In this document: positions 2,693 to 31,380 of the stretch, one piece after another
Layout: every line of letters begins with the position of its first letter
Numbering within the stretch: position 1 is the stretch's first letter
From: Candidatus Woesearchaeota archaeon
GTDB taxonomy: Archaea > Nanobdellota > Nanobdellia > SCGC-AAA011-G17 > JACPNG01
Length of the DNA stretch: 33,388 nt
Direction: 5' to 3'
NCBI GenBank assembly: GCA_017609525.1
Contig: JAFCDT010000017.1
Location: forward strand, 1 to 33,388
Program-made: the position numbers and the translations under genes
Notes under the pieces: generated by a model
What the model was told of the DNA's origin: nothing
Database searches by the model: none
What the model saw: the letters and a program-made list of their open reading frames with translations, nothing else

Positions 2693-3327
2693 AAAGATTG
2701 ATTTGTTTTGACCTTGATGGAACGCTGCTTCATTCTCATAATGCTCATTCCTTGGCATTTAAAAAAGCATTAAAAAAACTAAAATTGCCAACAAAGACCC
2801 ACAAATTCATACAATCACAATTTGGAAAACCAAAACAAGAAGTAGCAAAGGCTATTGCACCAAAACAAAATAAAACAATCCAAAATCTAGTACTAAAATG
2901 GCACGACTATTATCTTTACAAAGAAACAAAGAAACACACAAAAAAAATAAAAGGAGTAATCTCTACTTTAAAGAAGTTAAAAAAGAATTATAAACTTGGA
3001 ATTGTTTCTAATTGTAAACACAGCAACATTATCCTTTTGCTTAAGGCCGCAAAACTATCACCAAAACTTTTTGATGTGATTATTGGCAACGATGATGTAA
3101 GACATTCAAAACCAGCTCCAGATGAAATACTCAAAGCAGAAAAACTAACACACGCAAACGCAGATTACATGGTAGGGGACACAATATATGACATAATTGC
3201 TGCTAAAAGAGCAAAAGCAAAAGCCATAGTGGTATTAACAGGCAATCAACCAAGAAAACTATTAAAGTCAAAGAAACCATTCAAAATCATAAAATCAATA
3301 CATGACCTTCCAAATGCATTAAAATGA
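2689..3327 (+). CDS. HAD-superfamily hydrolase, phosphoglycolate-phosphatase-like
   Basis: DLDGTLLHSHNAHSLAF motif I, SNCKHSN motif II, KPAPDEIL and VGDTIYDIIAAKRAKAKAIVV motifs III/IV; overlaps upstream stop by ATGA. Confidence 0.82.
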   Translation: MKRLICFDLDGTLLHSHNAHSLAFKKALKKLKLPTKTHKFIQSQFGKPKQEVAKAIAPKQNKTIQNLVLKWHDYYLYKETKKHTKKIKGVISTLKKLKKNYKLGIVSNCKHSNIILLLKAAKLSPKLFDVIIGNDDVRHSKPAPDEILKAEKLTHANADYMVGDTIYDIIAAKRAKAKAIVVLTGNQPRKLLKSKKPFKIIKSIHDLPNALK

Positions 3328-3779
3328 TACCGGAAATAATAAAGATAATTGCAATAGTTCTTTTAATTATATTTATAGTAAAAACAACAAAATTCATATT
3401 CAAATCAATTATTTTTATAGTCCTCCTCCTTTTTGTTTTAAGTTTCTTTTATCCAAGTTTTCCACTTGAACATGTAAAAGAATCCTTTAAGTTAGGAGTA
3501 AAAGAAAAAGTAGCTGAAAAAATGGAAGAATCAAAAGAAATAGCAGAATGTAAATTGAAACAAGGAATATGGCAAACAAATTCAAAAGGAAATAAGTTTT
3601 GTAATCTACCAACGCAAGATCAAAACAAGACATGTTTTAATTCAGATGAATGCGAAGGTCTTTGCATAGCCGATAACGAAACCACAGGACATTGCCAGGA
3701 TTATAACTATATCAAAGGGTGTTTTAAAATTTTAACAAATCAAACAAAAGATAAACAAGAAGAAATTTGTTTCGATTAA
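3324..3779 (+). CDS. Hypothetical membrane-anchored cysteine-rich protein
   Basis: Hydrophobic N-terminus followed by a domain with 8 Cys (CKLKQGIW...FC...TC...ECEGLC...HC...GC...IC); translationally overlapping with the upstream HAD gene. Confidence 0.7.
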   Translation: MIPEIIKIIAIVLLIIFIVKTTKFIFKSIIFIVLLLFVLSFFYPSFPLEHVKESFKLGVKEKVAEKMEESKEIAECKLKQGIWQTNSKGNKFCNLPTQDQNKTCFNSDECEGLCIADNETTGHCQDYNYIKGCFKILTNQTKDKQEEICFD

Positions 3780-3781
3780 AA

Positions 3782-5044
3782 ATGCAACAATATATAGATC
3801 TTAAACATAGGCCCAAAAAAACAAATGTAATAGCAGAATACTACTTAGAACCAAACAGGATATCATTAGAGAAAGCAGCCAACCATGTGGCGGGGGAGTC
3901 TTCTATTGACACATGGTCAGATATTAAAACCCTTTCTCCCAAAATAATCAAAAAACTAAGACCATATGTTTTCTCAATAAATAAAAAACAAAAAATAATC
4001 AAAATAGAATACCCAACAGAACTTTTTGAAAAAGGAAACATTCCACAAATTCTAAGTTCCTTGGCAGGAAACATATTTGGAATGAAGGCGGTAAGAAGCC
4101 TTAAACTACTAGACATACATTTTCCTGAAAAAATAGTCAAAAGTTTTAAAGGGCCAAGATATGGGATACAGGGAATAAGAAAATTAACAAAAATAAAAAA
4201 AAGACCTTTAATTGGAACAATAATAAAACCAAAACTAGGTCTTACTGCAAAAAAACATGCTAAACTTGCATATCAAGCATGGGTGGGTGGGGTAGATACA
4301 GTAAAGGATGATGAAAATTTAACTTCTATGATTTTTAATAGGTTCAAGAAAAGGATTGATTTAACATTAAAAATGAAGAGATTAGCAGAAAAAGAAACAG
4401 GGGAAACTAAAATTTATATGCCAAACATTTCAGCAGAAACAACAGAGATGATAAAAAGAATGAACTATGTTCAAAGAAAAAATGGAAATTATATAATGGT
4501 TGATGTCCTAACAGTTGGATTTTCTGCATTACAAACAGTAAGAAACAAATCAAAGTTACCAATACACGCCCATAGGGCAATGCACGCAGCATTAACTAAA
4601 GATAAAAAACACGGCATTTCAATGTTAGTCCTCGCTAAACTTGCAAGATTAATCGGTGTAGATACTTTACACGTTGGCACTGCTTTTATAGGAAAAATGT
4701 TTGAAACAAAAAAAGAAGTCCTAGATACAGAAAGAGAAATAGAAAGACAATATATTAAAAAAAATAGTCATCTATTAGAGCAGAGATGGTACAAGATAAA
4801 ACCAGTAATGGCTGTAGCTTCTGGCGGACTCAATCCAGTACAAATACCAAAACTAGTAAAGACAATGGGAAATAATGTTGTGTATAATTTTGGAGGAGGA
4901 ATTCACGCACACCCCCTAGGAACAGAAGCAGGAGCAAAGGCAGCAAGACAAGCACTAGAAGCAGTTATTAAGAAAAAAACATTAAAACAGTACTCTAAGA
5001 ATCACAATGAATTAAAACTAGCATTAGAAAAGTGGTCTAAATAG
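3782..5044 (+). CDS. rbcL: RuBisCO large subunit, form III-like
   Basis: GTIIKPKLGL, GGVDTVKDDENLTS (carbamylated Lys region KDDE), HAHRAMHAALTKDKKHGIS, HVGTAFIGKM (loop 6 region), ASGGL, FGGGIHAHPLGTEAGAKAA; GESSIDTW and NIFGMKAVRSLKL N-domain motifs. Confidence 0.93.
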   Translation: MQQYIDLKHRPKKTNVIAEYYLEPNRISLEKAANHVAGESSIDTWSDIKTLSPKIIKKLRPYVFSINKKQKIIKIEYPTELFEKGNIPQILSSLAGNIFGMKAVRSLKLLDIHFPEKIVKSFKGPRYGIQGIRKLTKIKKRPLIGTIIKPKLGLTAKKHAKLAYQAWVGGVDTVKDDENLTSMIFNRFKKRIDLTLKMKRLAEKETGETKIYMPNISAETTEMIKRMNYVQRKNGNYIMVDVLTVGFSALQTVRNKSKLPIHAHRAMHAALTKDKKHGISMLVLAKLARLIGVDTLHVGTAFIGKMFETKKEVLDTEREIERQYIKKNSHLLEQRWYKIKPVMAVASGGLNPVQIPKLVKTMGNNVVYNFGGGIHAHPLGTEAGAKAARQALEAVIKKKTLKQYSKNHNELKLALEKWSK

Positions 5045-26958: not shown

Positions 26959-27696
26959 ATGCACGCAATAATTCTAGCAGCAGGATATGGAACAAGGCTT
27001 AGACACGTAATAGGAAATAAACCAAAAGCTTTAGTCAAAATAGGAGAAAAAACAATTCTAGATTACTTAGTTAAAAATATTGAAAATACAGACATAAAAA
27101 ATACAACAATAGTAACAAACAACAAATTCTATCAACAATTTATGGATTGGAAAGAACAATATAGGGGAAGTCTAAAAATAAACATAGTTAATAATAACAC
27201 CAACACAAACGAAGAGCGTTTGGGAGGAATAAAAGACCTGCATCTTGGGATAACAAGTTCAAACATAGAAGAGGACATACTTATTCTATCAAGTGATAAC
27301 ATTCTCAACTTTAGCCTTAACGAATTCATAAAGTATTTCAAAACCCATAATCAGATTACAAATGGCTCAGTGATTATTCCAAATAAAGAAGAAATCAAAA
27401 AAATGGGTGTTATTCAAATAGATGAATTAAAAAGAATAATCTCTTTTGAAGAAAAACCAGAAAATCCAAGATCTAATTTAGGAAGCATTGGCTGTTATAT
27501 CTTTCCAAAAAACAAATTAAATCTAATAAAAGAATATTTAGATAAAAACCACAATCCAGAAGGGCCAGGATTCCTAATACAACACCTCCATAACAAATAC
27601 CCTATACACTGCTTTATAACAAACACCGCCTGGTTTGATATTGGCACAGCAGAAACACTAAAACAAGCACAGGAAGCATTTAAAGATGAAATATAA
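26959..27696 (+). CDS. Sugar-phosphate nucleotidyltransferase family protein
   Basis: HAIILAAGYGTRLRHVIGNKPKALVKIGEKTILDYLV; ISFEEKPENPRSNLGSIGCYIF; WFDIGTAETL. Confidence 0.9.
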   Translation: MHAIILAAGYGTRLRHVIGNKPKALVKIGEKTILDYLVKNIENTDIKNTTIVTNNKFYQQFMDWKEQYRGSLKINIVNNNTNTNEERLGGIKDLHLGITSSNIEEDILILSSDNILNFSLNEFIKYFKTHNQITNGSVIIPNKEEIKKMGVIQIDELKRIISFEEKPENPRSNLGSIGCYIFPKNKLNLIKEYLDKNHNPEGPGFLIQHLHNKYPIHCFITNTAWFDIGTAETLKQAQEAFKDEI

Positions 27697-27961
27697 TCTA
27701 GAACTAAATAAAGCAATAGAGGAAATAAAAAAGATTAAAGCAAAGACAGTCTTAGTACAACTTCCAGACGGTTTAAAACCAAAAGCAACAGAAATAATAA
27801 AAGAACTCGAAAAAAACACAAAAGCTAAATTCTTTATTTGGCTTGGATCTTGTTATGGTGCATGCGACATCCCAAAAGCAGATGTGGATTTATTAATTCA
27901 GTTTGGCCATAGCAAATGGCACAAGTCATATGAAACTATGGGAGGAAAAAATGTCAGATGA
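27686..27961 (+). pseudogene. Truncated diphthamide biosynthesis protein Dph2-like
   Basis: MKYNLELNKAIEEIKKIKAKTVLVQLPDGLKPKATEIIKELEKNTKAKFFIWLGSCYGACDIPKADVDLLIQFGHSKWHKSYETMGGKNVR*; matches only the first domain (VQLPDGLK...CYGACD...DLLxxFGHS). Confidence 0.72.
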
Positions 27962-31192: not shown

Positions 31193-31261
31193 TGTGTTAA
31201 TGTCCGAAGTTTAAAAAGCAAAATCCGAAGACCTCACCTTCTAAATTCTCCCATTAACACA
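31193..31261. repeat. Tandem palindrome-closed 69-nt element, copy 1
   Basis: TGTGTTAATG-TCCGAAGTTTAAAAAGCAAAATCCGAAGACCTCACCTTCTAAATTCTCC-CATTAACACA; perfect 10-bp terminal inverted repeat. Confidence 0.85.
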
Positions 31262-31268
31262 TTAAGTG

Positions 31269-31337
31269 TGTACTAATGTCCGAAGTTTAAATGACAAAAT
31301 CCGAAGACCGCATCAAATAAATTCTTCCATTAGTACA
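31269..31337. repeat. Tandem palindrome-closed 69-nt element, copy 2
   Basis: TGTACTAATG-TCCGAAGTTTAAATGACAAAATCCGAAGACCGCATCAAATAAATTCTTC-CATTAGTACA; same length as copy 1; stem differs at two base pairs, both compensated. Confidence 0.85.
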
Positions 31338-31380
31338 TCAAATTAAACACTTTTTAGGTATTTAAAGCTTTTGTTTTAAC

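What the first reader, a model, noticed from the sequence alone, without database searches (positions are those of the whole stretch)
31193..31337. Tandem 69-nt elements with perfect closing stems and compensatory base-pair changes
Between the convergent P-type ATPase (stop 31184) and metK (stop 31403) lie two elements of identical length (69 nt, period 76 nt). Each is closed by a perfect 10-bp inverted repeat. Copy 1 has TGTGTTAATG/CATTAACACA and copy 2 has TGTACTAATG/CATTAGTACA: stem positions 4 and 5 changed and both partners changed with them (G-C to A-T, T-A to C-G). By hand alignment 56 of 69 positions match. The interior keeps TCCGAAGTTTAAA, CAAAATCCGAAGACC and TAAATTCT; TCCGAAG occurs twice per copy. 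A second internal pairing GAA(G)TTTA/TAAATTC is possible in both. Covariation within a tandem pair suggests selection on base pairing, such as a structured RNA in the ATPase 3' UTR, a dual sRNA, or a palindrome-closed mobile or recombination element. I do not recognise it as a tRNA, a C/D box RNA or a known riboswitch. The pairing and covariation are seen in sequence; function is inference.
Basis: partly seen in the sequence, partly recalled or inferred. Interest (0 to 1): 0.75.

Follow-up and report, generated by a model that had tools for sequence, protein, structure and literature searches.

The report
New BHB hairpin RNA family, nanosized archaea
The two odd repeats are one gene for a small structured RNA, unnamed until now and found in dozens of tiny symbiotic-type archaea, whose conserved core looks like the mark that the tRNA-splicing enzyme cuts, so it may release tiny circular RNAs.

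Summary
They are the only such pair in the window. The RNA is on the MINUS strand, not the ATPase 3' UTR strand. Covariance models found homologues in about 44 Woesearchaeota/Pacearchaeota-type genomes from 13 families, and nowhere else I searched. Covariation is overwhelming: all 10 closing-stem pairs change on both sides. G·U outnumbers A·C 240:18. There is no Rfam match. In 32 of 37 arrays an archaeal TATA box lies about 30 nt upstream of the first hairpin, against 5 expected. So it is a stand-alone small RNA gene of 1-5 tandem hairpins.

The conserved core has the geometry and handedness of the archaeal bulge-helix-bulge (BHB) splicing motif: outer helix, 4-bp helix, 5' bulge AA(U), inner helix, 3' bulge GGA. 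The genome's own pre-16S rRNA and intron-containing tRNAs have similar BHBs. Cutting as in tRNA introns and joining the ends would give a 42-nt circular dumbbell capped by cUUCGg at both ends. That explains why CUUCGG is nearly invariant while its partner strand varies. The family and its promoter are shown; cutting, circularisation and cellular role are inferred.

The parts
31359..31367 (-). TATA box CTTTAAATA of the proposed promoter; BRE-like AACAAAAG at 31368-31375. Predicted start of transcription near 31336-31337
   Evidence: Read directly. Same placement in 32 of 37 homologous arrays against 4.9 expected in shuffles.
31269..31337 (-).
   Evidence: Model R1 E = 4.1e-19; fold -22.8 kcal/mol, z -4.8. 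It was a member of the seed alignment, so the E-value is not independent.
31193..31261 (-).
   Evidence: Model R1 E = 7.7e-21; fold -29.1 kcal/mol, z -7.4. Seed member likewise.
31322..31327 (-). 5' half of the BHB-like core in the first hairpin: central-helix strand GAAG (31324-31327) plus bulge AA (31322-31323); proposed cut after 31322. In the second hairpin: 31246-31251 (GGAG AA)
   Evidence: Scan; column counts 14 G 53/53, 15 R 53/53, 18 A 52/53, 19 A 51/53.
31279..31285 (-). 3' half of the BHB-like core in the first hairpin: CUUC (central helix) plus GGA bulge; proposed cut between 31280 and 31279. In the second hairpin: 31203-31209
31299..31307 (-). Distal cUUCGg tetraloop with its neighbours in the first hairpin (UCUUCGGAU). 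In the second hairpin at about 31223-31231
   Evidence: cNNCGg-type loop in 51 of 53 homologues.

Best explanation
This is a stand-alone small RNA gene on the minus strand, driven by its own TATA promoter between metK and the hairpins. It makes a transcript of about 145 nt holding two tandem hairpins. [Shown: conserved structure, strand, upstream TATA box, distribution.] Each hairpin carries at its core a bulge-helix-bulge motif: outer helix P1, 4-bp helix GRAG:CUUC, 5' bulge AA(U), inner helix P3, 3' bulge GGA. The tRNA-splicing endonuclease EndA would cut after the second base of each bulge, as in tRNA introns and pre-rRNA. [Inferred from geometry, handedness and comparison with the genome's own BHBs.] The released inner piece, joined by RtcB, would be a circle of about 42 nt in which C(UUCG)G closes the junction end and a second cUUCGg closes the other. 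[Inferred.] P1 and P3 keep pairing but not sequence, so the product's shape rather than its sequence is likely what matters. My best guess is a stable circular double-stranded RNA that binds a protein or keeps EndA/RtcB occupied. [Speculative.]
For: (1) Family: order 11 genomes with strong hits, further class members, 19/180 and 11/49 in two further families. (2) Covariation 0.624 against 0.256 +/- 0.012 shuffled; P1 94% paired with all 10 pairs changing on both sides; slid controls collapse. (3) Strand: G-U 240 against A-C 18. (4) Promoter: 32/37 TATA boxes against 4.9 expected; about half of 17 further hairpins scored later reach the same cut-off (some of these are not first in their array). 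(5) BHB: type II hairpins fit strict 3-4-3 hBHBh' (L022 c and e, L151), and type I hairpins L147, L026, L159 also fit strictly. The type I to II change of the central helix (GRAG:CUUC to GAGC:GCUY) is compensatory. (6) Same genome, same handedness: tRNA introns CTTA(TAT)..TAAG(ACA) and TTGG(CAA)..CCAA(TTT), and pre-16S AAGC(AAAC)..T GCTT(AGA), against W1 GGAG(AAT)..A CTTC(GGA). (7) CUUCGG 64-69 is near invariant while its partners at 15 and 17 vary; excised pieces fold as two-capped dumbbells in 46/53, and for both window copies the predicted cut is the best of 121 offsets. (8) EndA and RtcB are present. (9) Published precedent: the joined ends of archaeal circular 23S rRNA form a GNRA tetraloop (PMC12918454), and a 46-nt BHB circle comes from a Haloferax 5' UTR (PMC7714728).
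Against: No transcript or cleavage data were available. In most type I hairpins the 5' bulge is strictly 2 nt, because U20 can pair with R63 (52/53), so the BHB is relaxed; yet EndA here is a single short protein, which suggests the strict homotetrameric type. The default fold of both window copies is a different conformer (3x3 purine loop GRA/GGA plus bulged C), about 2 kcal/mol better than the BHB conformer. In 13/53 hairpins the fourth central pair is a mismatch. Seven of 53 do not fold as a two-capped dumbbell. In the held-out set 12 of 19 distinct hairpins do, and three lack CUUCGG at the junction. EndA and RtcB are near universal, so their presence is weak support.
Confidence: 0.55

Rival explanations
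1. A stand-alone structured small RNA that is not cut. The conserved internal loop (GRA/GGA 3x3 purine loop with a bulged C, capped by UUCG) is a binding site for an unknown protein, and tandem hairpins give two sites.
For: All the family, strand and promoter evidence applies equally. RNAfold prefers this conformer in the window copies. Invariant unpaired bases are typical of protein-binding loops.
Against: It does not explain why C67 stays C when base 17, its partner in this fold, is C or U (13/53), why exactly CUUCGG recurs at both ends, or why type II hairpins switch to GAGC:GCUY with 3-nt bulges on both sides.
Confidence: 0.33
2. The BHB-like hairpin is an EndA decoy or regulator that binds without (or regardless of) being spliced; the products have no function.
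For: The only sequence conserved across families is the EndA-like recognition core and the tetraloop; P1 and P3 vary freely.
Against: A strong, dedicated UUCG cap at the would-be junction is not needed for a decoy. Most relatives lack the RNA yet have EndA.
Confidence: 0.07
3. H/ACA-like guide RNA: two-sided pocket above a 9-10 bp stem, in tandem hairpins.
For: Tandem hairpins with a closing stem of the right length and a conserved two-sided internal loop.
Against: An ANA box within 3 nt of P1 in only 21/53; no k-turn; UUCG-capped upper stem; no Rfam match.
Confidence: 0.02
4. A hairpin repeat or mobile DNA element, or a transcription terminator shared by the convergent genes.
For: Palindromic, tandem, patchy distribution, and in this window lying between convergent genes.
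Against: One locus in the genome; own TATA box; mixed gene orientations, 12 of 38 arrays having an opposite-strand gene upstream and a same-strand gene downstream; G-U bias for one strand; no related viral contig.
Confidence: 0.03

Closest known systems
Archaeal BHB (hBHBh') motifs in pre-16S/pre-23S rRNA
   Same: Outer helix, 4-bp central helix, bulges on opposite strands in the same handedness; excision would free and circularise the inner piece. In circular 23S rRNA the joined ends also form a tetraloop (GNRA; PMC12918454).
   Different: Here the released piece is only about 42-50 nt with no rRNA in it. The hairpin is a gene of its own, repeated in tandem, and the junction loop would be UUCG.
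Archaeal tRNA introns and their circular products
   Same: Same motif geometry as introns in this genome; similar intron size.
   Different: No tRNA around it; the 'exons' are only the two arms of a 10-bp stem.
BHB-flanked 46-nt circle from the 5' UTR of HVO_1309, Haloferax volcanii (PMC7714728)
   Same: A short circle released by EndA from a non-tRNA, non-rRNA transcript.
   Different: Single case in an mRNA leader; not a conserved stand-alone RNA family.
Circularised SRP RNA of Thermoproteus (PMC4731332)
   Same: A functional non-coding RNA matured through circularisation of the BHB type (from the abstract and general knowledge; paper not read in full).
   Different: Restores a known RNA from permuted pieces; the present RNA resembles no known RNA.

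Membership tests
BHB (hBHBh') splicing substrates of archaeal EndA | 4-bp central helix | tested here: met
   Columns 14-17 with 64-67: three pairs formed in nearly all 53 and the fourth in 40/53. Type II GAGC:GCUY complete.
BHB (hBHBh') splicing substrates of archaeal EndA | Two 3-nt bulges on opposite strands | tested here: inconclusive
   3' bulge GGA/UGA is 3 nt throughout. The 5' bulge is strictly 3 nt in type II and some type I, but AA plus a pairable U in most type I.
BHB (hBHBh') splicing substrates of archaeal EndA | Handedness: bulge follows the central helix on both strands | tested here: met
   Same order as tRNA introns L194 and L201 and pre-16S of the same genome.
BHB (hBHBh') splicing substrates of archaeal EndA | Cleaved by EndA and ligated | not testable with these tools
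   Needs biochemistry or circRNA-seq.
H/ACA guide RNA | ANA box 3' of the closing stem and a k-turn/k-loop | tested here: not met
   ANA within 3 nt in 21/53; upper stem is UUCG-capped.
Riboswitch / 5' leader element | Lies upstream of, and on the same strand as, a regulated gene | tested here: not met
   In the window both neighbours converge; across loci the downstream gene is opposite in 16 of 38 arrays and unrelated between families.
Any Rfam 15 family | Match above the gathering score | tested here: not met
   Window stretch: nothing near a gathering score. 20 homologous loci: only tRNA and 5S neighbours.

The most novel reading that the evidence does not exclude
A dedicated class of genes in Woesearchaeota and Pacearchaeota whose only purpose is to make tiny circular double-stranded RNAs: tandem BHB hairpins cut by EndA and sealed by RtcB, with the splice junction itself folding into a UUCG tetraloop so that the circle is a dumbbell capped at both ends.
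Probability: 0.45. Interest if true: 0.87.

Novelty: new variant of a known kind. Interest (0 to 1): 0.74.

Why it matters
Non-coding RNAs of the very small DPANN archaea are almost uncharted, and this is a well-supported family that spans 13 families of them with its own promoter. If the BHB reading is right, it shows splicing machinery used not to remove something from an RNA but to manufacture a free-standing circular RNA, with the sequence at the cut doubling as the cap of the product. That can be tested directly with purified EndA and RtcB, or in existing metatranscriptomes.

Tried and rejected
Rfam at gathering and permissive thresholds gave only chance hits (a human lncRNA model scoring 20 bits where 40 is required). 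DNA blastn in the own genome found no further copies. IMG/VR patterns: 0 hits for the strict pattern, 46 for the loose one, and the best of these scored only E = 0.011 with the model, with poor P1 pairing. Genome collection pattern: 16 hits, all 12 archaeal ones true, none of the 4 bacterial ones matched the model. K-turn, C/D box, H/ACA, archaeal SECIS and riboswitch readings were considered and dropped on anatomy or context. A shared neighbour gene across families was sought: only local synteny inside families was found (next to a Dph2-like ORF and aIF5B, or next to RNase_H_2 and Band_7 genes), so no partner protein could be named. The forced-BHB energy comparison did not enforce pairs in all sequences, so only the W1 and W2 values, which show the intended conformer, are used. 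Literature searches found no description of such an RNA in DPANN.

Full report
Observation. No other perfect 10-bp arm pair of that span exists in the window, and shuffled windows average 0.1. The minus strand folds much better than the plus strand.

Homologues. blastn against 60 relatives found weak but clear copies. Their alignment gave model R1, which found 11 strong positive genomes of 103 in the order, exactly two hairpins in the window's own genome, and more in the class. Refined model R2 extended this across the phylum sample (all hits fall in the same class) and within two families (19/180; 11/49). In all about 44 genomes of 13 families carry it. A pattern search of named genomes gave 12 archaeal hits, titled Woesearchaeota, Pacearchaeota, Nanoarchaeota or plain 'archaeon', all confirmed by the model. 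Within the window's order the presence is patchy: close relatives lack it even with laxer filters.

Structure. On 53 hairpins 86% of cells pair against 65.5% shuffled. The covariation score is 0.624 against 0.256, and sliding the partner by one column collapses it. All ten P1 pairs change on both sides. The shuffle control does not allow for relatedness, but the slid control does, and the families are diverse. G-U outnumbers A-C 240 to 18, so the modelled strand is the RNA.

Gene. In 32 of 37 arrays an 8-mer matching TTTAWATA at 7 or more positions lies 24-36 nt before P1, against a mean of 4.9 (largest 10) in mononucleotide shuffles. In the window it is CTTTAAATA at 31367-31359, which puts the start of transcription at about the first base of the first hairpin. 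T-rich stretches follow most arrays. Neighbouring genes differ between families and orientations are mixed, which argues against a leader element or shared terminator. Arrays hold one (25), two (11) or three (2) hairpins found by the model, some with added type II hairpins.

Core. Numbering as in alignment A1: G14 R15 A16 N17 A18 A19 U20 on the 5' strand and R63 C64 U65 U66 C67 G68 G69 A70 on the 3' strand. Two pairings compete. One is a 3x3 loop (14-16 against 68-70) with 17-19 paired to 65-67 and C64 bulged. The other is a bulge-helix-bulge: 14-17 paired to 64-67, AA(U) bulged 5', GGA bulged 3'. The first is about 2 kcal/mol better for the window copies. The second is favoured by type II hairpins, which fit strict 3-4-3 BHB with a different helix (GAGC:GCUY), and by some type I hairpins that fit it strictly. 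It is also favoured by the same genome's tRNA introns and pre-16S stem, which show the motif in the same handedness; the pre-16S one carries the same small departure (extra base next to the 5' bulge opposite one base). In one clade bases 16 and 17 become G and C/U together, which allows the helix to shift register by one (63-66); this was noticed by eye and not tested formally.

Product. If cut after the second base of each bulge, the released piece runs from U20 to G69. Closed into a circle, C64-UUCG-G69 caps it and U20-R63 continues the stem; 46 of 53 fold so, and for both window copies that cut is the best of 121 offset combinations. Of 19 later, held-out distinct hairpins 12 do so, and three lack CUUCGG at the junction. 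This explains why 64-69 is almost invariant while its pairing partners at 15 and 17 are free. The published finding that ligated ends of circular archaeal 23S rRNA form a tetraloop (PMC12918454) is a close parallel. EndA and RtcB are in the genome, but also in relatives without the RNA.

Limits. No expression or cleavage data; MAGs only; the models' seeds include the window copies, so their E-values are not independent; relatedness is not fully corrected. What the RNA does in the cell is unknown; binding a protein, or acting on EndA/RtcB, is a guess.

Noticed in passing
window 27686-27961 (+): A stand-alone 91-aa ORF matching only the first ~59 positions of the diphthamide synthesis family PF01866; homologous ~95-aa ORFs sit 55-86 bp from this RNA in six Pacearchaeota-type loci. 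Possibly a minimal Dph-like protein or a broken gene.
   Followed up: partly
L035 and L041 (genome G068), downstream of the type I hairpin: A large multibranched palindromic structure with several UUCG loops follows the hairpin at both loci of this genome.
   Followed up: no
L153/L051 (genome G221), about 45 nt after the array: The two-hairpin array lies just upstream of a 5S rRNA gene and tRNAs on the same strand.
   Followed up: no
L205 (G000:C44), 16S at 2743-4210: The pre-16S processing stem has an extended BHB (14-bp outer helix, AAGC:GCUU, bulges AAA and AGA); no clear BHB was seen around 23S.
   Followed up: partly
L022 c, e; L151 266-323; L034 downstream: Type II hairpins GAGC-AAY...GCUY-UGA are near-perfect strict BHBs and may be a family of their own.
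   Followed up: partly
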